From Candidatus Cloacimonadota bacterium (GTDB lineage: Bacteria > Cloacimonadota > Cloacimonadia > Cloacimonadales > Cloacimonadaceae): DNA of 48,178 nt. Location: contig JALOBM010000011.1 of assembly GCA_023228285.1 (NCBI GenBank), forward strand, positions 1 to 48,178, read 5' to 3'. Shown here piece by piece: positions 33,552 through 48,178 of this stretch (positions are counted from its first letter, which is position 1; each line of letters starts with the position of its first letter). The translations under genes were made by a program, and so were the position numbers. The notes under the pieces are model-generated. The model saw nothing but the letters and a program-made list of their open reading frames with translations. It was not told the origin of the DNA and made no database searches.

Positions 33552-36500
33552 ATGAGACGATTATTGCTTTTCACGCTGCTGTTAATACTTACACTCAGTC
33601 TTAGCAGCACCATCTTTGCCCAAGTAACCGTTACCTTGGGAGAAGGGACGCAAACCAATAGTACAACTGGTTCCCCTGCTCCTTATGGTACATGGTACAG
33701 AAACTACCGGCAACAGTATCTTGTGCTTTCTAACGAGCTCAATGATATTGGTGGCGGACCTGGAAACATCAACTCCGTCGCCTTCAACGTCGCCGCTTTG
33801 AACAACTGCACACCAATGAACAACTTCAGAGTGCGCATCAAAACAACTGAACAGACTACACTATCAAGCAATTTTGAGGCTGGAACCTACACAGAAGTGT
33901 TCCAGGTCGCAGAGTTCATGCCTGTAGTTGGATGGAATACTCATACTTTCAGCACTCCATTCAACTGGGATGGCGCTTCAAATCTGCTCATCGAAGTGGT
34001 TACCGACCTTATAACTGGTAGCTATGCACAGAATGCCTCAGTTTACTACACGGTAACTTCTCACAATAGCTCCCTGCGCTATCAGAGTGACTCTGAATCT
34101 GCTGATCAGTCCACTACCGGTACCACTTTTGCCGGTCGCTCCAATATGCAAATCAATATGGAAGCGTTGGACATCACAGACTTGAACGCAATGGGTATCA
34201 CTGGCCCCACAACTCCAAACGTAAACTCCACCGTGAACTACACTGTTTCGGTGAAGAACTACAGCCTTACCTCACTTTCTAACTACACCGTCAAACTCAT
34301 GCAAGTTGGTGGCGTGGAACTCGGCAGCGTAGCCGGCACCACTATCCAACCCCAAGAAACTCTTACCTTTACCATGCCCTGGACCCCCACCGTTGTCGGT
34401 GAAACTCAGCTTTATGGTAAAGTAGTAATGACAGGGGACGAAAATCCTGCCAACGACGAAACTGACATGCTTAACATAAACGTGATGGAAGCAGGATTGC
34501 TGGTGGTCGAACTTGGAAACGGCACCGGGACCAATACCAATACCGGACCTTCCCCCTACGGCACATACTACAAGAACTTCCGTCAACAGTATCTGTACAC
34601 AGCGGACGAAATTTATGCCGCCGGCGGCGCACCCGGACTCATCAACTCCCTGGCCTTCAATGTGCAATCCCTTGACCAATGCACAGCCATGCCGAACTAC
34701 AGAATACGCCTGAAACACACCGAACAGGCTGCTCTTACCACAGCCTTTGAAGCCGGTGAATATACCCAAGTATGGCAATCTGCAGAATACATGCCAGTTA
34801 ATGGCTGGAACATTCATGTATTCACTACTCCATTCTTCTGGGATGGCGCTTCCAATCTGCTGGTAGACATCGTTACCGATCTCATTCCCGGCGATTATGC
34901 CCGTAACGCGCTGGTTTATCAGACGGCTACACCTTTTGCCAGCTCTCTGCGTTATCAGAGCGATTCTACTTCTGCAGATACAGCGACAACTGGTAGCGTG
35001 TATTCAGACCGCTCCAATGCTCGTTTCTTCATGATTATTGACGATATGGGCAGCCTCAGCGGAACCGTCACCAGCGGTGGCTCACCTCTGGCTGATGTAC
35101 TGCTCGCTGTGGAAGGCACAGTGTTTACAGCTACCTCTGCTGCAGATGGTAGCTACAACCTGCCTTTCGTACCGGTTGGTTCTCAGACAGTTACCGCTTC
35201 CAAGCATGGTTACATCGACGTAAGTCACACTGTAACCATCGTGGAAGATCAAACTAGTACTCAAGACTTCGTATTGAACCTGCTTCCTCAGGTTGCCGTG
35301 AGCGGAAGAATTGTTGGCAGCGACGCCCCCACCGTGGGTATTGCCGAAGCTGCAATCACTCTCAGCGGTTACGAACCTTACACCGCAACCACAGACGCCA
35401 ACGGTATGTTCAACATCCCGAACGTGTTTGCCAACCACACTTACAACTACACTGCCGCAGCTATTGGCTATGCCTCTACAACCGGTACTCTGGAAGTGGG
35501 CAGCACTGCCGTTAACATGGGTGACATCATTGTGAACGAAGTAGCTTATCCTCCACATAGTGTGGTAGCTACCGAATCTGAGGATTATGCCTCTGTAGCT
35601 TTGCAGTGGGAAGCTCCCGTACCCGGTGGCAGCGGTTTCGAAGACAGCTTTGAAGAATATGCAGATTTCTCGATTGAGTTTGGCGAATGGACACTGGTAG
35701 ACGTGGATCAATCCACCACCTACGGATTCAGTGGTATTTCCTTCCCCAACAGCGGAACCGCGATGTCCTTCATAGTATTCAATCCGGCCACCACCACTCC
35801 TCCGCTGGAAGATAATCCTGCCGTAACCGGTGACAAGTATGCTGCATGCTTTGCATCTACCACCCCTCCGAACAACGACTGGATGATCACTCCCCAGGTA
35901 TTGGGCGGTGGAGAAGTAAGATTCTGGGCCAGAACATATATGCCCGACTACGGCTTGGAACGCTTTAATGTTGGTGTATCCACAACCGGAACTGCTCCTG
36001 CAGACTTCACCATCATCAGCGGAACCACCTATGTAGAAGCTCCGATTGTATGGACCGAGTACGTATATGATCTCTCAGCTTATGCCGGACAGCAGATTTA
36101 TGTTGGCTTGCAATGCGTATCCAATGACGCCTTTATCTTCTTCGTAGATGATTTCTACGTAGGAGATATTCAGGTTCGCACTGCTTCCAGCGCTGCAGCT
36201 ATGAATGTTCCAGTTATAGACATGGTAAAAAATGCTGATGCACGTCGCAGCATCGTTACTCCTAATCCCGTGAACATCGTATCACCTCAGCCCAGAAATA
36301 CCGAACGCTCACTGCAGGGTTACAAAGTGTACCGCCTGCTGTCAGCTGATCAAGCTAACGAAGCCAACTGGGATACCCTGACTGAAAGTACTATCACCCC
36401 TACTAGCTATACAGACAACGCATGGGGTCCCCTGCCTTCCGGTGTTTACAAATATGCCGTGAAAGCACTTTATACAAACAACGTGATGTCCCCTGCAGCT

Positions 36501-38699
36501 TTCTCTGCTGACCTTCACAAAGGCATGATGGGCGTACTGAACGGCACCGTTACCGAATTTGGTACTGGTTTTGCCGTTGAAGGCGCAACTGTCACAGCCG
36601 GTGAATACAGCGGAGTCACAGACGCTACAGGTGAATACAGCTTCCAGGTCTATGCTGGTACTTACAATGTGACTGCCTCCAAGACAGGATATCAATCCTT
36701 TACTCAGGATGGTGTAGTCATCACCGGACTGCAAACTACCACAGTGGACTTTGTCCTTACCGAGATCACCCTGCCTCCAGCTGCCGTAGTAGCTGTAGAA
36801 GCTGGCGATAACATAAACCTCACATGGATGGCTCCCGGTACTGCCGGTGGCGAATGGCTCCACTATGACAGCGGTGAAAACAATGACAGCATCGGAACCG
36901 GTGGCTCAACTAACTTCGACGTAGCTGTACGCTTCCCTCCGAGCGCTCTCACTGATTATGCTGGAATGAGCTTGCATGCCCTCAAAGTATGGCCTGCTCA
37001 GCCCGGAACCTTCACCCTCAAGGTATGGACCGGTGGTGATGCTAGCACTCCTGGTACCTTGGTAGTAGAACAGCCCTTCACTCCTGTACTTGATACCTAT
37101 AATACCGTATTGTTGGACAACCCTGTAACCATCAGCGGAACCGAAGAACTGTGGTTTGGCTACAACTGCAACGTATCCAGCGGATATCCTGCCGGTTGCG
37201 ATGCCGGTCCTGCCACCGATGGACTGGGCAACATGATGTATTTCAATAATGTTTGGGGTACTCTTCTGGATATCAATCCCGATTTGAACTACAACTGGAA
37301 CATCCAGGGTTATGTAGGCTACACCGGTCCCGACCGTGGTGGTCTGATGCCCTTGACTACAAAGACAAACTTCGAGCAAGTAAATGAAGAACGCGCACTG
37401 GATGGTTATAAAGTATGGCGTCTGCTGCAAGGTCAGGAATCCAATGAGGCTCAATGGGCTGCCATTTCTAATATCATTACTACAACTGCTTATCAAGACA
37501 CAGACTGGAGTACCCTGCCTGACGGCATGTACAGATGGGCTGTAAAAGCAGTTTACACAGGCGGTGCCCTCTCCGCTACTGCGTTCTCCAACGTCATTGA
37601 AAGACTTACAGAGATCGGAACCATCTCCGGTTTCGTACGTGATCAACAACAGCAACCCATCAGTGGCGCTACTGTCTCTACCGGAAACTACTCTGCCACT
37701 ACAAACGCCCAAGGCGTTTACAGTATGGCCGTTCCTGCCGGAACCCACTCTGTGGTTGCCAGCCATCCGAATTACACTTCTGTAGTTACAAATGGTGTGA
37801 TTGTTGTTACCAACCAGATCACTACTCTGAACTTCATTCTTCCTCCCAGCGAGGTTTTGTTTGAAGATAGCTTCGAAAGCTATGCAGACTTCAGTACCAC
37901 CTTCGCTCCTTGGATATTGAATGACGTTGATGGATACACAACCTATGGTTTCAGTGGTATTTCCTTCCCCAATAGCGGAACCGCGATGTCCTTCATAGTA
38001 TTCAATCCGGCCACCACCACTCCTCCGCTGGAAGATAATCCTGCTCATACCGGAGACAAATATGTAGCCTGCTTTGCATCTACTACCGCTCCAAACAACG
38101 ACTGGATGATCACTCCGGTGCTTCCCGGTGGCGGTGAATTGAAATTCTGGGCAAGGACTTACATGCCCGATTACGGCTTGGAACGCATCAAAGTTGGTGT
38201 GTCCACAACTGGAACAGCTCCTGAAGACTTCACCATCATCAGTGAAGGTACTTACCTGGAAGTTCCGATTGAATGGACTGAATATACCTTTGATCTCGCC
38301 AGCTATTACGGTCAGCAGATCCATATCGCCCTCAACTGCGTATCAAACGACGCCTTCATCCTCTTCGTGGACGATGTAGAATACTCCGGTTCTGGTGATG
38401 CCGATGACGTGGTAGCCGTACATAAAAACGCCCTCAATGGCAACTATCCGAACCCCTTCAACCCCGAGACCACCATCTCCTTCAGCGTGATGAACGACGG
38501 TCCCGTAAACATCGACATCTACAACGTGAAAGGCCAGCTTGTACGCACGCTTGTCAAGGACGTGAAAGCTGCCGGTGACCACACTGTGGTTTGGAAAGGT
38601 ACAGATAACAACGGTCGTGCAGTATCCAGCGGTGTTTACTACTACAAGATGACCACTGGCAAATACAGCTCAACCAAGAAAATGATCCTCATGAAATAA
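33552..38699 (+). CDS. Giant multidomain secreted surface protein with T9SS-type sorting module
   Basis: Complete 1715-residue protein. Signal peptide ~1-23 (MRRLLLFTLLLILTLSLSS...FAQ). Modules: beta domain A1 (~24-215), CARDB-like (~215-315), beta domain A2 (~316-500, a close copy of A1), two carboxypeptidase-regulatory-like domains (~500-665), FN3 with anchor-J-like domain (~690-875), a third regulatory-like domain (~995-1075), one YPAGCD module (~1090-1260), a fourth regulatory-like domain (~1360-1435), and a second anchor-J-like domain (~1436-1605). The last ~90 residues are the FlgD-Ig/T9SS sorting domain (NGNYPNPFNPETTI..., ending KKMILMK), nearly the same as in the first giant protein. 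It is probably exported and attached to the surface for adhesion or polymer capture. AAAGGAG precedes the start; a strong terminator follows the stop. Confidence 0.92.
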   Translation: MRRLLLFTLLLILTLSLSSTIFAQVTVTLGEGTQTNSTTGSPAPYGTWYRNYRQQYLVLSNELNDIGGGPGNINSVAFNVAALNNCTPMNNFRVRIKTTEQTTLSSNFEAGTYTEVFQVAEFMPVVGWNTHTFSTPFNWDGASNLLIEVVTDLITGSYAQNASVYYTVTSHNSSLRYQSDSESADQSTTGTTFAGRSNMQINMEALDITDLNAMGITGPTTPNVNSTVNYTVSVKNYSLTSLSNYTVKLMQVGGVELGSVAGTTIQPQETLTFTMPWTPTVVGETQLYGKVVMTGDENPANDETDMLNINVMEAGLLVVELGNGTGTNTNTGPSPYGTYYKNFRQQYLYTADEIYAAGGAPGLINSLAFNVQSLDQCTAMPNYRIRLKHTEQAALTTAFEAGEYTQVWQSAEYMPVNGWNIHVFTTPFFWDGASNLLVDIVTDLIPGDYARNALVYQTATPFASSLRYQSDSTSADTATTGSVYSDRSNARFFMIIDDMGSLSGTVTSGGSPLADVLLAVEGTVFTATSAADGSYNLPFVPVGSQTVTASKHGYIDVSHTVTIVEDQTSTQDFVLNLLPQVAVSGRIVGSDAPTVGIAEAAITLSGYEPYTATTDANGMFNIPNVFANHTYNYTAAAIGYASTTGTLEVGSTAVNMGDIIVNEVAYPPHSVVATESEDYASVALQWEAPVPGGSGFEDSFEEYADFSIEFGEWTLVDVDQSTTYGFSGISFPNSGTAMSFIVFNPATTTPPLEDNPAVTGDKYAACFASTTPPNNDWMITPQVLGGGEVRFWARTYMPDYGLERFNVGVSTTGTAPADFTIISGTTYVEAPIVWTEYVYDLSAYAGQQIYVGLQCVSNDAFIFFVDDFYVGDIQVRTASSAAAMNVPVIDMVKNADARRSIVTPNPVNIVSPQPRNTERSLQGYKVYRLLSADQANEANWDTLTESTITPTSYTDNAWGPLPSGVYKYAVKALYTNNVMSPAAFSADLHKGMMGVLNGTVTEFGTGFAVEGATVTAGEYSGVTDATGEYSFQVYAGTYNVTASKTGYQSFTQDGVVITGLQTTTVDFVLTEITLPPAAVVAVEAGDNINLTWMAPGTAGGEWLHYDSGENNDSIGTGGSTNFDVAVRFPPSALTDYAGMSLHALKVWPAQPGTFTLKVWTGGDASTPGTLVVEQPFTPVLDTYNTVLLDNPVTISGTEELWFGYNCNVSSGYPAGCDAGPATDGLGNMMYFNNVWGTLLDINPDLNYNWNIQGYVGYTGPDRGGLMPLTTKTNFEQVNEERALDGYKVWRLLQGQESNEAQWAAISNIITTTAYQDTDWSTLPDGMYRWAVKAVYTGGALSATAFSNVIERLTEIGTISGFVRDQQQQPISGATVSTGNYSATTNAQGVYSMAVPAGTHSVVASHPNYTSVVTNGVIVVTNQITTLNFILPPSEVLFEDSFESYADFSTTFAPWILNDVDGYTTYGFSGISFPNSGTAMSFIVFNPATTTPPLEDNPAHTGDKYVACFASTTAPNNDWMITPVLPGGGELKFWARTYMPDYGLERIKVGVSTTGTAPEDFTIISEGTYLEVPIEWTEYTFDLASYYGQQIHIALNCVSNDAFILFVDDVEYSGSGDADDVVAVHKNALNGNYPNPFNPETTISFSVMNDGPVNIDIYNVKGQLVRTLVKDVKAAGDHTVVWKGTDNNGRAVSSGVYYYKMTTGKYSSTKKMILMK
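35727..35821 (+). repeat. Intragenic 95-bp direct repeat, copy A
   Basis: Matches 37950-38044 at 94 of 95 bases (one C/T difference, silent). It encodes the FSGISFPNSGTAMSFIVFNP core of the anchor-J-like domain. Flanking sequence diverges quickly, as expected for gene conversion. Confidence 0.92.
37950..38044 (+). repeat. Intragenic 95-bp direct repeat, copy B
   Basis: Second copy of the tract at 35727-35821, in the C-terminal anchor-J-like domain of the same protein. Confidence 0.92.
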
Positions 38700-39983: not shown

Positions 39984-42887
39984 ATGAGGTTAGACAAGCG
40001 TCGCCTTATCCTGATCCTGCTTGTTGCTTTTATCCTCGGACTTACGATGGTAACAGCACAAAAGCAGGATACCAGAGATGAGAACGTAGTTGCAGATTTT
40101 AGCGTGTCGGATGTTCCGGCAGACGACGGTTCGGGACTGATGTTGTCTTGGAAGCCCTTGGATCGCAGCAAGCGAATCATCGAATATCGTGTCTATCGTG
40201 GTATCAAACCCGATCAATTGTTCTATTTAGAAACCATCCAGGTCAATCCCAAAAGCGGCGTTGCTTCAGACGTAATGTATTATTATGACAACTCCGCCAG
40301 TGAGCTTTCCGATGCGAGTTTTCCCGCAAAACTAAAATTGGAAAAGGGGCAACCGTCAAATGGCATATTATATAAGAATCCCCCTCGTGACCTGAAGTTT
40401 ACCGCATCATTGCTGGATCACTTCCAAATGATTTCTCTTTCAAACCGCAATCACTTCTACAAACGTAGTCAAGAAGTGGTGGTGGATCCCGAGGCCGAAG
40501 AGATCAATAGTTATGCCGGTATGAAGGCAAACCAACAGACAGTATTGGGTTTTTTGAAGCCCGGCAGTACATACTATTATACGGTAGTGGCTGTTGATGA
40601 ACGTCAGCGGCTCTTGCCCAATGCTCCGGTGCAATCCGGAAGCCCGATTCCAAACCGTCCGGATCCATCTCCCGCTCTTCACAGTGTGTTACTGCAAGAC
40701 ATCGGCGAGCTGCGCTTTGAATGGGAGTATCCCATCTACAAAAGTTCTTTGGTTCAATACCGCATTTGGCAAATGAATAACATAGTCCCCAAAAGCTGGG
40801 ATGAGATGAGACAAAACATCCTTTCCCTGGAAGGAATGGGACGCCTTGTAGCCCAGGGAGCGGTTGGCGGCGGAGCTTTACCAAACTACACCAAAGTGGA
40901 AGTGGGCGAAGGTATCGCCGGATTCAATGGCTCCACCTTCGTATTGGAACTCATCGATGCATACGGTGCTTCATCGTTCTCCCCGCTATCACAGCCTCGC
41001 CTGTTGAATAGCGATGCCCTTCCTCCCCGCACTGACTTCTGGGTGGAAGATAAACCCAACGATAAGGGCGATCGCCTGTCCGTGGTGTGGGATCATCCCA
41101 TCATCTTTGTTGTGAAGACCACATCTTTGAATAAAGAGAATACTCGCCTGCGCGTGAACTATCAATTGAATAAGACCGAGAATCAGGAAGTAAGCAATAT
41201 ATGGTTCAGCTTCTATGATCCGGAGAATGGCACAGAACTGGCCACCATCAAAGAATTCTATCAGGACGACAGCGTCATCCTGAAGCTGCCGGATGATTAC
41301 GATTTTAAGAAGGGTGTAAAAGCGAAGATCACCATGACCGGCAAGCCTGAAATACCCGAAGATTATGTGATCGAACAAGACTTGGAGTACAATCCCGGAA
41401 TGATGGCCTTACTGCCCGCAAAAGCGCTGTATCGCAATGGTAGAGATGTATCCAATATCTTCAACGTGGTGTATCGCAAATATATGCACTCTCCCGCCTG
41501 GCGCTTGATTATGAAGAATACATCCTATGATAACTCTTTGGATGTAACAGTTCCTTACGGCACAAATGCCCAGAAACTGGTTCAGGGTATCAGCTATGCC
41601 GAAGGTGATTCCATGATTATGCACATTGTGGGGGCAGAGGGTGTGGAGCGCACAGCCCGTAAGCTGATACCCGGAGAGCGCAAAGCGCCGGTAACGATGA
41701 TGTCGCATGTAGTGGATTTCTTGTGGGATGCCAAGAACGAAGTATTGGTGAGCACCAGTCTGTTTGAGGGCAGAGCCCGCGAAATGCACGAGAAGACAAT
41801 AGCGGAAGCTCAAGCCGCCATTGCAGAATTGGAAGCCGCCAAAGAAGGTGCCGATGAAGCTACATTGGCCTCGCTGAATGCTCAGATCGAGCGTCAACAA
41901 GCTATTCTGGACACATATAGCAACAATGAAACAGTGCAGCATGCTCTGAACACCAAAAGCAATGGCTCACGCCTCAAACAAATTCTGAAAGCGTATGACA
42001 ACTTTATGCGCAGCCAGAGTTTCCTGGTGGTGAAAACCGATAGCAAGGGACTGTTTGTGGAGTCTGAACCGTTGGAGAATGGTGTTAATACAGCGTATTT
42101 CATGCCAGTATCAAACTGGTTTGACAACAATAAATGGGTGACACTCTTTACTACCTTGCTCTTTGTGGGGATTGTGGTGGTATTCGTGAACCTTGCCAAG
42201 CGCGGGAAAGACCTCTATATACGTCCGATTGCGGGTTTGCAGGAGATCGACAACGCCATCGGCCGCGCTACCGAGATGGGCCGCCCAATGTTGTATTGCA
42301 TGGGTAATGGCTCCATATCTGATGTGGCGACCATCGCATCCATGGGTATTTTAGGATTGGTGGCACGTCGCGCTGCGGAATATGACACTAAGCTCATAGT
42401 TCCCTGTTACGACTACATCATCATGCCCATCGCTCAGGAAATCGTGCGAGAAGCCCACTATGCCGTGGGTCGTCCGGACACCTATGATCGTAACAATGTA
42501 TTCTACCTTACCAATGTGCAATTTGCTTATGTGGCAGGCGTGAATGGTATCATGATCCGTGAGCGGATGGCAACCAACTTTTTCCTGGGCTACTTTGCTG
42601 CGGAAGCGCTGTTGATGACGGAAACTGGAAATACAGTAGGTGCTGTGCAGATTGCCGGTACGGACGCAGTTACACAGATTCCGTTCTTCATCACGACTTG
42701 CGACTACACTTTGATCGGAGAGGAATTGTATGCCGCGAGTGCCTATTTGAACCGCGAACCGATGCTTTTGGGCACCCTGAAAGCTCAGGACTATTTCAAG
42801 TTCTTTATCTTGTCCATCGTGATCGTTGGAGCTATATTGTCCAGCTTCGGGATCACTGGATTAACCACTTTGCTGCCAGAGAAATAA
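39984..42887 (+). CDS. DUF6754-like membrane protein with large extracytoplasmic FN3-type region (paralogue A)
   Basis: 967 residues. Signal peptide or TM ~6-25, FN3-like beta domains (~35-210 and onward; VADFSVSDVPADDGSGLML...LSWKPLDRSKRIIEYRVYRG), other beta regions, and a predicted coiled coil (~600-650; EAQAAIAELEAAKEGADEA...). TM ~718-738 leads to a conserved domain (~742-935): YIRPIAGLQEIDNAIGRATE, MGRPMLYCMGNG, VGRPDTYDRNN, TETGNTVGAVQIAGTDAVTQ, then IPFFITTCDYTLIGEE. A last TM follows (~939-960). I recognise this as DUF6754-like; function unknown. Basic residues after the TM (NLAKRGKD) place the conserved domain in the cytoplasm. ATG 39984 is chosen because AGGAG lies 8 nt upstream. 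It leads a cluster of membrane genes. Confidence 0.78.
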   Translation: MRLDKRRLILILLVAFILGLTMVTAQKQDTRDENVVADFSVSDVPADDGSGLMLSWKPLDRSKRIIEYRVYRGIKPDQLFYLETIQVNPKSGVASDVMYYYDNSASELSDASFPAKLKLEKGQPSNGILYKNPPRDLKFTASLLDHFQMISLSNRNHFYKRSQEVVVDPEAEEINSYAGMKANQQTVLGFLKPGSTYYYTVVAVDERQRLLPNAPVQSGSPIPNRPDPSPALHSVLLQDIGELRFEWEYPIYKSSLVQYRIWQMNNIVPKSWDEMRQNILSLEGMGRLVAQGAVGGGALPNYTKVEVGEGIAGFNGSTFVLELIDAYGASSFSPLSQPRLLNSDALPPRTDFWVEDKPNDKGDRLSVVWDHPIIFVVKTTSLNKENTRLRVNYQLNKTENQEVSNIWFSFYDPENGTELATIKEFYQDDSVILKLPDDYDFKKGVKAKITMTGKPEIPEDYVIEQDLEYNPGMMALLPAKALYRNGRDVSNIFNVVYRKYMHSPAWRLIMKNTSYDNSLDVTVPYGTNAQKLVQGISYAEGDSMIMHIVGAEGVERTARKLIPGERKAPVTMMSHVVDFLWDAKNEVLVSTSLFEGRAREMHEKTIAEAQAAIAELEAAKEGADEATLASLNAQIERQQAILDTYSNNETVQHALNTKSNGSRLKQILKAYDNFMRSQSFLVVKTDSKGLFVESEPLENGVNTAYFMPVSNWFDNNKWVTLFTTLLFVGIVVVFVNLAKRGKDLYIRPIAGLQEIDNAIGRATEMGRPMLYCMGNGSISDVATIASMGILGLVARRAAEYDTKLIVPCYDYIIMPIAQEIVREAHYAVGRPDTYDRNNVFYLTNVQFAYVAGVNGIMIRERMATNFFLGYFAAEALLMTETGNTVGAVQIAGTDAVTQIPFFITTCDYTLIGEELYAASAYLNREPMLLGTLKAQDYFKFFILSIVIVGAILSSFGITGLTTLLPEK

Positions 42888-42899
42888 ACGAGGTTTTCA

Positions 42900-43529
42900 A
42901 TGAAGAAGACAATACCATTACTAATCGTAATTGTTGGAGGTCTGATCTGGGTGGCTTGGGCCTTTAGCCCCCACTACATCCTTCAAGAAGTGTTTTACAA
43001 TCAGTTCTATCTGCCTTGGGCTTATGCTTCGTCGCCTTTCGCGATGCTTTTGGGTGTGCTGTCTCTCACCATGATGCACTCCAACAAAATCAAGATGAAA
43101 GCGCCGAAATGGCAATATAGCTATTTCTTCTTTGGCAGTTTCATCATCACCTGCCTGGCCGGTTTTATTGGCGGCATCCAAAAAGGCAGTTTGTTTATGT
43201 GGATGTTCGAAAACGTACAGATGCCGATGAGTGCCACAATGTTCTCTCTGTTGGCTTTCTATATGGCATCAGCAGCGTACAAGGCATTCCGTGCCCGTAG
43301 TCCTGAAGCCACGGTACTCTTGGTGGCTGCGATCGTTGTGATGCTGGCTCAGGTTCCGCTGGGAGTACAAATCTCCAAACACCTGCCCACCATCTCACAA
43401 TGGATTTTGGACGTTCCGAACCTCGCTTCCAAGCGTGGTATCATGTTGGGTGTTGGTCTGGGATCCGTGGCCACATCCCTGAAAATTTTATTAGGCATCG
43501 AACGCTCATATCTGGGCGGCGGTGATTGA
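42900..43529 (+). CDS. Polytopic membrane protein of the DUF6754-like cluster
   Basis: 209 residues with about five or six hydrophobic helices (near residues 5-22, 40-60, 76-95, 110-128, 139-157 and 180-196). Several glycine/serine-rich packing positions are present, but no motif of a known transporter was recognised. The N-terminus is MKKTIPLLIVIVGGLIWVAW, either the first helix or a signal. Start ATG at 42900 follows the DUF6754-like stop by 12 nt with CGAGG upstream. The gap to the next gene is 15 nt, so the genes look like one operon. It is probably a structural or channel partner of the flanking membrane proteins, which is inference from position only. Confidence 0.75.
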   Translation: MKKTIPLLIVIVGGLIWVAWAFSPHYILQEVFYNQFYLPWAYASSPFAMLLGVLSLTMMHSNKIKMKAPKWQYSYFFFGSFIITCLAGFIGGIQKGSLFMWMFENVQMPMSATMFSLLAFYMASAAYKAFRARSPEATVLLVAAIVVMLAQVPLGVQISKHLPTISQWILDVPNLASKRGIMLGVGLGSVATSLKILLGIERSYLGGGD

Positions 43530-43544
43530 TCCGGGGAGAGGAAA

Positions 43545-44726
43545 ATGAATATCTTTGAAAGAATGCAAAAGCTTGACCGCCGCTGGATCTACATTGTTGT
43601 AGCTTTGGCAATCATCATTCCCTTGATGATACCTTACGACTCCGACAACGTGACCACTCCTCCTACCGAGAATCTGTATCAGATGATCGATAGCTTTGCC
43701 GGTAGAGAAGACCGCGCTATCCTGATGAGCTTTTATCACGATGCTGCCACTATGCCGGAGCTCTTTCCCATGGAAGTTGCAATCCTGCGTCACTGCTTTG
43801 AACGTAATGTGAAGGTCTTTACACTTACATGGTTCCCTGCCGGCGCGCCGATTATCGACTACGCCATAAACTCCGTGAAAGAGGAGTTTCCCGATATCCA
43901 AAGCGGAGTGGATTACTGTAACTTTGGCTACAAACCTCAAGCCTTCGCAATGGTGCTGGGTATGGGTGACAACATCGCCAATACTATGAATACAGACGCC
44001 GAAGGACGCAAGCTGGAAAACCTGCCCATCATGAAAGGCATCAATAACTACAGCGAGATGAACCTGGCAATCGAATTCTCCGGCTCTTCCGCGGGTGGTA
44101 TGTGGATCACCTACGCGCGGCCGAAATATGGCTTGAATGTGGCTGTAGGCGTTACTGCGGTTATGGCTGCCGATGAGTATCCCTATTTGCAATCCGGACA
44201 GCTTATCGGAATGCTGGCAGGTCTCAAAGGGGCTGCCGAATATGAAAAGCTGGTAGATATCTTTGCCGCCTATCGCGATCCAAAGATTGATTATAGCGTG
44301 AAAATGGACGAAGACGGCAACAAGATACTGCCGGGACGTCCCTTTGGACGCGAGATTCTGGAAGACGACTCCAGCAAGAAACTCTCCCTCATCACTACTC
44401 AGACGAAAGCGGTGTTTACTCCGGAGGAATTTGCTGCGTTCAGCGCAAAGTACCCCGAAAACATGGCTTTGCTGAATAGCATGCGCAAGGTTGAAGAAGG
44501 TAAAATGATCATCGATATCACCGAGATCACTCCGGAAATGCGCACACAAATGGGTGACATCATGTACCGTGAGATCGAGCGCCTTACCCGCAATACCCTG
44601 TACAAATTCAAAGTGGCGCGTATCGGGATGAACGCTCAGAGCGTAGCTCACATCATGATCATCGTCTTCATAGTATTGGGTAATATTGGTTACTTCATCC
44701 AAAAAGCCCGTCAACCGAAGAACTAA
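43545..44726 (+). CDS. Two-TM protein with an alpha/beta domain, DUF6754-like cluster
   Basis: 393 residues. A basic start (MNIFERMQKLDRRW) and TM helix (~15-31) precede a large soluble domain (~35-365), and a C-terminal TM (~370-388) ends with basic QKARQPKN. Positive-inside counting puts the soluble domain outside the cytoplasm. The domain begins AILMSFYHDAATMPELFPME, then VKVFTLTWFPAGAPIIDYAI, and later GLNVAVGVTAVMAADEYPYL and SGQLIGMLAG. These segments line up in order with parts of the DUF6754-like domain of the neighbours, which may mean distant homology. GGGGAGAGG precedes the start. Not a recognised family. Confidence 0.75.
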   Translation: MNIFERMQKLDRRWIYIVVALAIIIPLMIPYDSDNVTTPPTENLYQMIDSFAGREDRAILMSFYHDAATMPELFPMEVAILRHCFERNVKVFTLTWFPAGAPIIDYAINSVKEEFPDIQSGVDYCNFGYKPQAFAMVLGMGDNIANTMNTDAEGRKLENLPIMKGINNYSEMNLAIEFSGSSAGGMWITYARPKYGLNVAVGVTAVMAADEYPYLQSGQLIGMLAGLKGAAEYEKLVDIFAAYRDPKIDYSVKMDEDGNKILPGRPFGREILEDDSSKKLSLITTQTKAVFTPEEFAAFSAKYPENMALLNSMRKVEEGKMIIDITEITPEMRTQMGDIMYREIERLTRNTLYKFKVARIGMNAQSVAHIMIIVFIVLGNIGYFIQKARQPKN

Positions 44727-44738
44727 GAGGAGGAAGAA

Positions 44739-45341
44739 ATGAGTTTCGAATTATTCAGTAATCTGGTGGGAGCTTTTTTCACTCTGTGCATTTTCTCCTT
44801 CCTGTACAAAGACAATCCCTTCTACCAAGCTGCAGAACAGATGCTTGTGGGCATCTCTCTAGGTTATGGCCTGGTATATACCTACAATCGGGTGTTTGTG
44901 CCCTACGTGTGGCAGACTATCGTGATCAAACACCAGTTTGTGCTTATTATCCCTGCCATCATGGGTATCCTGTATCTCTTCCGCTTCTCGCGTAAATTGG
45001 GCTGGCTATCCCGTTACCCAATCGCATTTTCCATGATGGGAGTAGGTATGGGCGTGCCGATGGGTATCCACGCCAGCATTCTGGTTCAGATGCGTCAGGC
45101 CATGGTTCCCATCGAATCCGTAAACCTGTTCCTGATATTCATCGGTACTATCGCAGTGCTTTTGTACTTCTTCTTTTCCAAAGCTCACAGCGGAGCCTAT
45201 GGCAAGTTTGTGAATGTAGGAAAATGGTACATGATGATCGGTTTCGGAGCCTCATTCGGACTAACCGTTATGGCTCGTATATCACTCTTGATCGGGCGTA
45301 TCCAATTCCTGGTCAACGACGTTTTTGGTATCCTCAAGTAA
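44739..45341 (+). CDS. Polytopic membrane protein of the DUF6754-like cluster
   Basis: 200 residues with about five or six hydrophobic helices (near 8-23, 36-52, 66-82, 92-110, 124-142 and 160-180). No transporter signature was recognised. The charged Lys/Arg clusters (FRFSRKLGWLSRYP, FFFSKAHSGAYGK) lie between helices as in ordinary inner-membrane proteins. AAGAGGAGG lies just before the ATG, 12 nt after the upstream stop. Together with the 209-residue protein it gives the cluster two small polytopic subunits, suggesting a multi-subunit membrane complex (inference). Confidence 0.75.
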   Translation: MSFELFSNLVGAFFTLCIFSFLYKDNPFYQAAEQMLVGISLGYGLVYTYNRVFVPYVWQTIVIKHQFVLIIPAIMGILYLFRFSRKLGWLSRYPIAFSMMGVGMGVPMGIHASILVQMRQAMVPIESVNLFLIFIGTIAVLLYFFFSKAHSGAYGKFVNVGKWYMMIGFGASFGLTVMARISLLIGRIQFLVNDVFGILK

Positions 45342-45353
45342 TATTGAAGGCAG

Positions 45354-45389
45354 CCTGGCGCAGTGGTATGCTGCGCCGGGTCTTTCTTT
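45354..45389 (+). terminator. Hairpin with T-rich tail inside the DUF6754-like cluster
   Basis: A 10-bp stem (CCTGGCGCAG with CTGCGCCGGG, one G-T pair) and 7-nt loop is followed by TCTTTCTTT. It lies between the polytopic gene and the second DUF6754-like gene. It could fully or partly separate the last gene from the operon, or act as an attenuator or mRNA 3' stabiliser. Confidence 0.65.
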
Positions 45390-45438
45390 GTGACAGCAAA
45401 CCGGGGAAACCCGAAGATAGAATACCCGTTTTGGGGAT

Positions 45439-48178
45439 ATGATGAAAAAAGCTCTTTATATGACCATCATGGTGTTGCTCCTCTGGGGCGTCACCGTACT
45501 ATTTGCCGCTCCCGCACTTAGCGGAAACATAGCGGAGTTTAGCGTATCGGATCTGCCTGATGACGATGGTAGCGGTATTATCTTGAAGTGGAAGCCTCTT
45601 TCCAAAGAACACAGAGTGATTAAATACAACATCTACCGCGGAGTTAGTCCCGATTCGTTGTTTTTGCTCACCTATCTGGAAGTGGATCCCAAGCTGGGTG
45701 TATTGGCACCCTATTTATACTATTACGATACAGGCGATCAACCATTGGCAGAGTTTGAGACCTCGCCGATGCGCCTCAAGAAAGAAAAGGATCAACCAGA
45801 AGATAGTCCCCTGTACGACAAGTTTCCGCTGATTCCAGAGCTCTTGGCTAAGGTGGTTGATCGTTACAATCTGCTTGCAATCACCAAAGCCTCTCACTTG
45901 CATAAAAGTTCGCGGACTATCCTGAAAGACGATAAAAGCTTTGCCGGCTTGAAAATGACCCAGATGGACGGCATCTATGCCATCCCCAAGGTGGGCGTAA
46001 CCTATTATTATAGCGTTGCGGCAGTGAACGAGCGGGGTATGGTGTATCCCGGAGCGGAAGCATTGTCCATCATTCCGGAAGACAATCCTCCTGATGCCAG
46101 CGCCATCATCCATGCCAGTTATGTGCAGGATGCCGGGAATATGAACTTTGAATGGCTGCCTCCCACAGGATCTGCGGATATCGCCGCCTGGCAGGGATGG
46201 TTGTTCCCGCGGGCTTTGATGCCGGAAGCGAAAGTGCTGCCTCAGGACTGGATGAACAGTGCCTTGCAGGTATTTGATATCCCCAATATGAGTGCCAGCT
46301 CTGTCTATTATCACACTGTTGATTTTGATGCTTCAGGATACGATCCCTCGCAATATGTACCGGTGCTTTCCTACATAGATTATGCCGGGCAGATGGCAGC
46401 AGTGACGGCAAATACCTATCGGCACCTGAACCGGAGTGATCTGGCTGCGCTACCTGCTTTTACAGTGATGGACAAGGCAAACGATAAGGGCGACAACATC
46501 CTGGTGTCTTTCGGAAAACCGCTTGCTTACATTACTTTAGCTGAGTTTACAAACAGAAAACACAACAAGCTGAAGATTAACTACGAGATCTCGGAAAATG
46601 AGAACTTCACCGTTGACAAAGTGAAGTTTAGCTTCAAGACCAAGGATGGCAAGGAAATCGGCACGATCACCGAGAAGTATGTGGATAAGGTGCTGCAATT
46701 TCCCATCCCTCCAGAGTTTAAGAACATAAAGTACATCCATGCTGAGATCGCTGTCCTGCTGCTGAAAGGCTCAGATTGGGAACCGGAAGTGGTAAGCCAG
46801 GAAGTGGTGTACAACGAGTATTTCAAGCGCTTTCAGGCTCAAAGCACCTTCGTGAATGGTGTTGACATCAGCAAGCTCTTCTTTGATGTGCAACAAAGAT
46901 CCATGCTGGACTGGGATTTCAGTAACGGTATCCGTGCAAATGCACTTACCAGAACTTACGATCACATGGTTCCCTTTGAAGATGTAGTGTTCAGTCCCAT
47001 CACTGGTTTTGATTCCACCAGCCGCAGATTTCTCTTTGACGCCCGGTTGTCGATTGCCGTCGATGCGGAAAATGGCTATAACTTTGATGTACCGCTCAGT
47101 CGCGATGCTTTTCTCCAAGAGATGGCAAACCGCGAGAGCAAGATAAAAGAGCTGGAAGTAAAACTGGCCGAAGCAGCTGACGAAGAAATGTCTGCAGAAC
47201 TGGAGTATCTCAAGGGCGAGTATAGCTTCATTACAGAGCATCCCGCCTACATCGAAGCATCCGCTGCCGAGAGCGATAAAGCCTGGCGTAAGATCATGCT
47301 TTCTTGGCGCGACAAAGCGCAACGCTCCCACAAATACCGCCTGATAGCCACCGACACAAAATCCGCGTTCCAAATCTCGGACATCTATCTGGATGAAGCC
47401 GGCAATGAATGGTTCTACCCGGTGTCCCAATGGTTTGACAGCACCAAGACTCTTACTTTGTTCACAACCGTTTTACTCTTGATCCTGGTAGTATATGCCA
47501 TCGTAATTACCAGACGGAAGGAAGTATTTATCCGCCCGATTGCCGGCTTGCAAGAGCTGGACAACGCCATCGGCCGAGCCACGGAGATGGGACGTCCCGT
47601 GATGTTTGTACCCGGATGGGGCACTTTGGGAGATGTGTGTACTATCGCCAGCCTGATGATCCTGGCGCAGGTGGCCAAAAAGACTGCCGAATACGATATC
47701 CGCCTGATCAATCCGCATTGCGACTACATGGTCTTGCCTTTGGCTCAGGAGATCGTCTCCACCTCATACAGCGAGATGGGGCGCCCGGATTCCTTCAACC
47801 AAAACGACATATTCTTTGTAAGCTACGATCAATTCCCCTTCTGTGCCGGTGTGAACGGTATCACAGTGCGTGAAAAGGTAGCAACCATATTCTATATGGG
47901 CTTCTTCAATGCTGAAGCGCTGCTGCTTACTGAAACAGGAAACCAGACAGGTGCCATTCAGATAGCCGCAACTGACGCCGTTACCCAGATTCCCTTCTTC
48001 ATCACCACTTGCGATTACACTCTGATTGGTGAAGAATTCTATGCAGCCAGTGCCTATCTTTCCCGTAACCACGACATGGTGAGCATGTTGAAGGCTCAGG
48101 ACTACTTCAAGCTGTTCATCATCCTGGGTATTATTGTGGGCGCTGTGCTTTCCACTCTCAATATCAGCGGTTTCATAC
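45439..48178 (+). CDS. DUF6754-like membrane protein (paralogue B, 3' end cut by window)
   Basis: About 913 residues are visible and probably only a few are missing, because the sequence stops in the final TM. Layout matches paralogue A: signal peptide (MMKKALYMTIMVLLLWGVTVLFA), FN3-like region starting AEFSVSDLPDDDGSGIIL, a coiled coil (~557-597), TM (~672-690), then FIRPIAGLQELDNAIGRATE, MGRPVMFVPGWG, MGRPDSFNQND, LLTETGNQTGAIQIAATDAV and FFITTCDYTLIGEEFYAASA, and a last TM. The central extracytoplasmic part is more diverged than the C-terminal domain. Two adjacent ATGs (45439, 45442) could start it; GGGG at 45433-45436 suits the second slightly better. A hairpin upstream suggests partly independent expression. 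Confidence 0.82.
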   Translation, partial: MMKKALYMTIMVLLLWGVTVLFAAPALSGNIAEFSVSDLPDDDGSGIILKWKPLSKEHRVIKYNIYRGVSPDSLFLLTYLEVDPKLGVLAPYLYYYDTGDQPLAEFETSPMRLKKEKDQPEDSPLYDKFPLIPELLAKVVDRYNLLAITKASHLHKSSRTILKDDKSFAGLKMTQMDGIYAIPKVGVTYYYSVAAVNERGMVYPGAEALSIIPEDNPPDASAIIHASYVQDAGNMNFEWLPPTGSADIAAWQGWLFPRALMPEAKVLPQDWMNSALQVFDIPNMSASSVYYHTVDFDASGYDPSQYVPVLSYIDYAGQMAAVTANTYRHLNRSDLAALPAFTVMDKANDKGDNILVSFGKPLAYITLAEFTNRKHNKLKINYEISENENFTVDKVKFSFKTKDGKEIGTITEKYVDKVLQFPIPPEFKNIKYIHAEIAVLLLKGSDWEPEVVSQEVVYNEYFKRFQAQSTFVNGVDISKLFFDVQQRSMLDWDFSNGIRANALTRTYDHMVPFEDVVFSPITGFDSTSRRFLFDARLSIAVDAENGYNFDVPLSRDAFLQEMANRESKIKELEVKLAEAADEEMSAELEYLKGEYSFITEHPAYIEASAAESDKAWRKIMLSWRDKAQRSHKYRLIATDTKSAFQISDIYLDEAGNEWFYPVSQWFDSTKTLTLFTTVLLLILVVYAIVITRRKEVFIRPIAGLQELDNAIGRATEMGRPVMFVPGWGTLGDVCTIASLMILAQVAKKTAEYDIRLINPHCDYMVLPLAQEIVSTSYSEMGRPDSFNQNDIFFVSYDQFPFCAGVNGITVREKVATIFYMGFFNAEALLLTETGNQTGAIQIAATDAVTQIPFFITTCDYTLIGEEFYAASAYLSRNHDMVSMLKAQDYFKLFIILGIIVGAVLSTLNISGFI

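What the first reader, a model, noticed from the sequence alone, without database searches (positions are those of the whole stretch)
39984..48178. Candidate undescribed membrane system: two DUF6754-like paralogues around three unknown membrane proteins
The sequence shows five same-direction genes. Four have gaps of 12-15 nt, and the fifth follows a hairpin. Two are paralogues with the same plan (signal, FN3-like ectodomain, coiled coil, TM, conserved domain, TM). Between them lie two ~200-residue polytopic proteins and one protein with a TM at each end. This mix of sensor-like ectodomains, a conserved inner domain and channel-like subunits suggests one multi-subunit envelope complex. No known transport, secretion or respiratory motif was found.
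Basis: partly seen in the sequence, partly recalled or inferred. Interest (0 to 1): 0.75.

Follow-up and report, generated by a model that had tools for sequence, protein, structure and literature searches.

The report
Conserved four-gene bacterial membrane system
Four neighbouring genes for little-known membrane proteins turn out to travel together, in the same order, across many bacterial phyla and together with a putative ATP-using partner, so they very probably form one membrane machine whose job is still unknown.

Summary
In detail: five same-strand genes, gaps 12, 15, 12 and 97 nt, a terminator-like hairpin before the fifth. Only A and E score over a Pfam or NCBIfam cut-off, for DUF6754.

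The single-system idea survives its strongest test. Of 158 A genes in fetched loci, 130 are followed directly by B-C-D on the same strand. Among 71 genomes outside the phylum, C occurs in exactly the 16 that carry DUF6754.

Two points change. The core is ABCD; E is a lineage-specific copy of A. And three genes outside the window go with it: a GlmL/MutL-family protein, its partner F, and a small protein G, found in 14, 15 and 15 of those 16 genomes, in operons such as G-MutL-F-A-B-C-D and A-B-C-D-G-MutL-F.

AlphaFold2 gives the A and C domains the same Rossmann-like order of elements, predicted on opposite membrane faces. Best guess: an ATP-driven inner-membrane machine, substrate unknown. Against it: one lineage's MutL has lost its phosphate motifs, and no interaction was tested.

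The parts
39984..42887 (+). A: signal/TM, large FN3-like ectodomain, TM, DUF6754 domain (predicted cytosolic), TM
   Evidence: sidedness is my reading of charge counts
42111..42869 (+). DUF6754 domain of A; AF2 model of 42024-42884 has mean pLDDT 90.5, Rossmann-like
42900..43529 (+). B: about six TMs, predicted N-in/C-in; no family over cut-off
43545..44726 (+). C: TM, Rossmann-like domain predicted outside, a poorly modelled insert, TM; no family over cut-off; AF2 mean pLDDT 86.5
44739..45341 (+). D: about six TMs, predicted N-out/C-out; N26, E33 and G38 at frequency 1.0 (rounded) in 129 aligned rows
45346..45387 (+). terminator-like hairpin with T-rich end between D and E
45439..48178 (+). 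E: second DUF6754 protein, lineage-specific copy of A (cut by the window end; 919 aa in G001)
47425..48168 (+). DUF6754 domain of E

Best explanation
ABCD is one inner-membrane complex. Shown by comparison: the four genes keep order and strand across many phyla and diverge together; A and C are gained and lost together; a trio (G, a GlmL/MutL-family ASKHA protein, F) goes with them. Inferred: B and D, two roughly six-TM proteins of opposite predicted topology, form the membrane core; A (Rossmann-like domain inside) and C (Rossmann-like domain outside) cap it on either face. MutL, with F as adaptor (fused to it in one form found in Cloacimonadota), docks on the inner face and uses an ATP cycle to drive a conformational change through A-B to C-D, moving or handling a small substrate. 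A's variable ectodomain adds lineage-specific capture or anchoring. The substrate is unknown; gene context in some lineages hints at amino-acid or lipoate metabolism.
For: Order: 130 of 158 A genes followed directly by B, C, D. Among 71 genomes outside the phylum: C in 16 of 16 with DUF6754 and 0 of 55 without; F 15 of 16 (one weak) and 0 of 55; MutL over cut-off 14 of 16 and 2 of 55 (frames of 455 and 503 aa), plus 3 of 55 weak; G 15 of 16 (three weak) and 2 of 55 weak; Fisher p 3e-16, 2e-14, 6e-11, 2e-12, which treat genomes as independent. Distance correlations between subunits 0.74-0.82; in tandem arrays all four subunits choose the same partner cassette in 473 of 874 comparisons, expected fraction 0.099. 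Arrangements G-MutL-F-ABCD, ABCD-G-MutL-F, ABCD-MutL-F and D-MutL. Same element order in the A and C models; weak matches of both to CODH epsilon, transhydrogenase dIII and sirtuins. MutL phosphate motifs (recalled) kept in 10 of 11 aligned.
Against: No interaction was tested. The Chloroflexales MutL has lost the phosphate motifs, so ATP hydrolysis is not universal. G182 has A and C but no F or MutL; G131 has F but no MutL match; G154 lacks G. G002, one contig, has three DUF6754 copies but one MutL and one F. Three A genes stand apart from B-C-D (L102, L139, L179). Profile comparison finds no sequence homology of A with C or B with D. Four Cloacimonadota genomes without a C match include three without DUF6754, of which G050 and G061 still have F and MutL.
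Confidence: 0.5

Rival explanations
1. A transmembrane sensor: A's ectodomain and C's outer domain bind a ligand, and the nucleotide state of MutL (a switch, not a motor) reports it inside.
For: Variable ectodomains on A; phosphate motifs lost in one lineage; DUF4388 in 4 of 137 scanned neighbour proteins, one of them next to D at L115, and a response-regulator-like protein (by eye) after F in G184.
Against: Two six-TM subunits are more than a sensor needs; some A proteins lack any ectodomain; no constant output domain among the recurrent neighbour clusters.
Confidence: 0.2
2. A membrane-bound metabolic enzyme of amino-acid or lipoate metabolism; MutL is its repair chaperone, as I recall being proposed for GlmL-type proteins beside B12-dependent mutases.
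For: MutL belongs to PF13941; gcvP genes in 13 of 121 loci, about half of them closely related Fermentibacteria-type loci, just upstream of the module, and LplA directly after D in 6 loci; A's domain has many nearly invariant polar residues including C226, D227, E233, E234; weak fold matches to NAD(P)-binding domains.
Against: No convincing Pfam enzyme family in A, B, C, D or F; MutL below the NCBIfam GlmL equivalog cut-off, 236 vs 475 bits; no gcvP or LplA among the Cloacimonadota neighbours clustered or scanned; fold matches are weak and non-specific.
Confidence: 0.2
3. Neighbouring genes without joint function, held together by chance or operon inertia.
For: Order alone can persist by inertia within a phylum; three A genes stand apart.
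Against: Same order and same presence or absence in genomes scattered outside the phylum, and tandem arrays whose subunits diverge as units.
Confidence: 0.03

Closest known systems
GlmL/MutL family (PF13941), accessory proteins of glutamate mutase and ornithine degradation (names from NCBIfam)
   Same: The partner covers the whole PF13941 profile, 4.7e-127, with phosphate motifs in 10 of 11 aligned
   Different: About 620 aa against a 450-position profile; below the NCBIfam cut-offs; accompanies membrane genes
Rnf/Nqr redox-driven ion pumps
   Same: Two polytopic subunits of about 200 aa with opposite predicted topology (Rnf/Nqr topology recalled) and a partner with an RnfC_N/NQRA_N-like barrel-sandwich domain
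   Different: No profile similarity of B or D to Rnf-Nqr; no conserved cysteine in B or D (best columns 0.10 and 0.39)
Sirtuin / CODH epsilon / transhydrogenase dIII type Rossmann-like folds
   Different: No Foldseek match at E 0.001 or better; about 10% identity; fold only
ASKHA-driven membrane machines such as PilM-PilN-PilO or GspL (recalled, not tested)
   Same: An ASKHA-fold protein working with an inner-membrane complex
   Different: Different ASKHA subfamily; polytopic partners

Membership tests
DUF6754 (PF20539) | profile score over Pfam's cut-off | tested here: met
   A 388.2 and E 365.8 bits vs 27
GlmL/MutL (PF13941) | profile score over Pfam's cut-off for the partner | tested here: met
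   311-439 bits vs 27 in the 5 MutL proteins scanned
GlmL equivalog (NF040745) | score over the curated cut-off | tested here: not met
   235.6 and 191 vs 475 bits in the 2 MutL proteins scanned
GlmL/MutL | linked to a B12-dependent mutase | not tested
   mutase subunits were not searched for
Rnf/Nqr | B or D related to Rnf-Nqr (PF02508) | tested here: not met
   no hit; hhalign probability 0.6 and 0.3
Rnf/Nqr | RnfC/NqrA-like soluble subunit | tested here: inconclusive
   RnfC_N in 8 of 13 F proteins (best 4.9e-8), NQRA_N in 4 of 13, Biotin_lipoyl in 6 of 13: a barrel-sandwich domain only
ABC or ECF transporter | ABC ATPase as constant partner | tested here: not met
   ABC_tran cluster in 15 of 121 loci only
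Sirtuins | SIR2 sequence profile in A | tested here: not met
   no SIR2 family listed at E up to 1
Known anti-phage defence systems | PADLOC profile hit | tested here: not met
   0 hits for the 5 window proteins at E up to 0.01

The most novel reading that the evidence does not exclude
A new class of ATP-driven inner-membrane machine: two antiparallel half-complexes (A-B and C-D), each a six-TM subunit plus a TM-Rossmann-TM subunit, descended from an ancient inverted duplication, with like-folded domains facing each other across the membrane and a GlmL-type ASKHA ATPase as motor.
Probability: 0.25. Interest if true: 0.88.

Novelty: categorically new. Interest (0 to 1): 0.72.

Why it matters
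DUF6754 is present in 121 of 124 genomes of the window's phylum and in many other phyla, so the system looks like core machinery, mostly of uncultured bacteria, with no assigned function. The paper library held no paper naming DUF6754 or PF20539. If the complex is real it would show what a GlmL-type ATPase does with a membrane complex, and an isolate-named holder, Oscillochloris trichoides DG-6, may make it testable.

Tried and rejected
Sequence homology of A with C and B with D: not found by hhalign, so the duplication idea rests only on matching element order and weak shared fold matches. Rnf/Nqr kinship of B and D: not found. PDB sequence matches for the short A, the short C, F and MutL: none convincing. 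Plasmid carriage of the short A: no match. Foldseek on A-core and C: nothing at E 0.001 or better; VIA matches taken as fold only. Single C relatives gave scattered Pfam hits (for example Radical_SAM in 4 of 86, best 0.022), taken as chance. Literature: 0 papers with DUF6754, 0 with PF20539, GlmL family or MutL family ATPase; GlmL with glutamate mutase gave 1 paper, seen as a listing; searches gave nothing I used (listings only). No paper was opened.

Dropped rows and limits: the 28 of 158 A genes without direct B-C-D are, by my reading cut by a contig or stretch end (one, L083, runs into the start of an extended C), 5 extra A copies after a D, 4 with one interposed ORF or a split gene, 1 with a truncated B, and 3 real exceptions (L102 first A, L139, L179). 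Record titles of metagenome bins can be wrong: L172 (titled Armatimonadetes) looks like Cloacimonadota and L128 (titled Methylomirabilis) like Riflebacteria in gene order or sizes, so I do not count those two phyla. For AF2 I gave 83 of 91 (A) and 85 of 89 (C) non-redundant relatives plus two and one window sequences. The neighbour scan used 137 of 262 non-redundant neighbours.

Full report
What is there. The window holds five same-strand ORFs at the reported coordinates. A and E are DUF6754 proteins; B, C and D score over no Pfam or NCBIfam cut-off. The hairpin between D and E is real as a predicted fold. The window is from Cloacimonadota: the best relative of C, 94% identical, is named Candidatus Cloacimonetes. 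The window's own assembly is not held; G001 shares 98% of its sampled words and completes E. After E in G001 lies a Rex-like gene (CoA_binding plus Put_DNA-bind_N domains); upstream of A a GNAT acetyltransferase.

A second copy gave the first clue. G001 has a third DUF6754 gene on another contig, and it is followed by homologues of B, C and D in the same order.

Distribution. DUF6754 is in 121 of 124 genomes of the phylum, in 16 of the 71 genomes outside it among 195 relatives, and in none of 14 control genomes. A protein search with a divergent copy found Oscillochloris trichoides DG-6 and other Chloroflexales.

Gene order. In 121 loci, 130 of 158 A genes are followed directly by B, C, D on the same strand; the other 28 are listed by kind under Tried and rejected. 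Junctions are tight: median gaps 10 (A-B), -1 (B-C) and 3 nt (C-D). Tandem arrays of two or three ABCD cassettes occur. Across 134 complete cassettes the four distance matrices correlate at 0.74-0.82, and over 20 loci with two or more cassettes all four subunits of a cassette choose the same partner cassette in 473 of 874 comparisons, against an expected fraction of 0.099; the same overall nearest cassette is chosen by A and C in 68 of 134 and by C and D in 56 of 134. Shared ancestry of genomes contributes to the correlations; the tandem test is less exposed to it.

Independent test. A profile of C over the same 195 genomes hits exactly the 16 outside genomes with DUF6754 and none of the other 55.

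Partners outside the window. The commonest neighbour cluster, in 42 of 121 loci, holds a MutL-family protein of about 620 aa (PF13941) and a protein F of about 376 aa. In the Cloacimonadota locus L097 they are one 1057-aa protein, the next gene upstream of A. G001 has both a separate pair and a fused form, away from the window locus. F is in 15 of the 16 outside genomes (G154 weakly) and 0 of 55. MutL over cut-off is in 14 of 16 and in 2 others, whose frames are 455 and 503 aa; 3 more have weak matches. The small protein G is in 15 of 16, three of them weak, plus 2 weak hits elsewhere. In L103 (Eisenbacteria) and L123 the order is gcvT-gcvH-gcvP-gcvP-(2TM protein)-G-MutL-F-A-B-C-D-LplA; in L118 and L142 (Riflebacteria) A-B-C-D-G-MutL-F; in L082 A-B-C-D-MutL-F; in a Chloroflexales genome D is followed at once by MutL. 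Re-use of the same set in different arrangements argues for function rather than inertia.

E. A tree of 53 A cores puts window A and E, with the pair from a genome of the same family, in one starred clade of four; a similar extra A in another family forms its own starred pair outside it. So E is a late copy and such copies may have arisen more than once. In G002, one contig, three DUF6754 genes coexist with a single MutL and a single F.

Mechanism. That ABCD is one complex I put at about 0.9, from the evidence above. That MutL-F powers it is inferred from co-occurrence, operons and intact phosphate motifs in 10 of 11 MutL proteins; the eleventh, from Chloroflexales, has lost them, so the partner may act as a switch or scaffold there. 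What is moved or made is not known. The glycine-cleavage and lipoate-ligase context, and the recalled role of GlmL relatives in amino-acid fermentation, point to amino-acid or lipoate metabolism in some lineages but were not seen among the Cloacimonadota neighbours examined.

Novelty. No known system with these parts was found; the searches cover Pfam, NCBIfam, PADLOC, PDB by sequence and fold, and the paper library. I file it as categorically new, with the function open.

Noticed in passing
L103, L106, L108, L123: The module sits between glycine-cleavage gcvP genes and a lipoate-protein ligase.
   Followed up: partly
L083:9542-10693 and L215:5079-7199: Chloroflexales C carries a long N-terminal tail full of PDWLR repeats; the assembly breaks inside it.
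   Followed up: partly
L215:2212-4422: Chloroflexales MutL has lost the ASKHA phosphate motifs (DCGSTTTKA, DIGGATTD) kept in 10 of 11 aligned.
   Followed up: partly
L134:18831-20606: A B protein with a large repeat domain (FG-GAP-like by eye) inserted in a loop between TMs, in line with that loop being external.
   Followed up: no
L090, L096, L098, L005: An extra A gene after D, apparently arisen separately in two Cloacimonadota families.
   Followed up: partly
L110, L112, L115, L117, L119, L120, L125, L127, L131: ExbB and ExbD genes near the module in Fermentibacteria- and Stahlbacteria-type loci, some with a TonB-dependent receptor.
   Followed up: no
L086-L089, L093, L099, L100: An aconitase swivel-domain gene just before long A genes in Cloacimonadota loci.
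   Followed up: no
33552-38699: 1715-aa secreted repeat protein whose C-terminal end looks like a type IX sorting domain (by eye).
   Followed up: no
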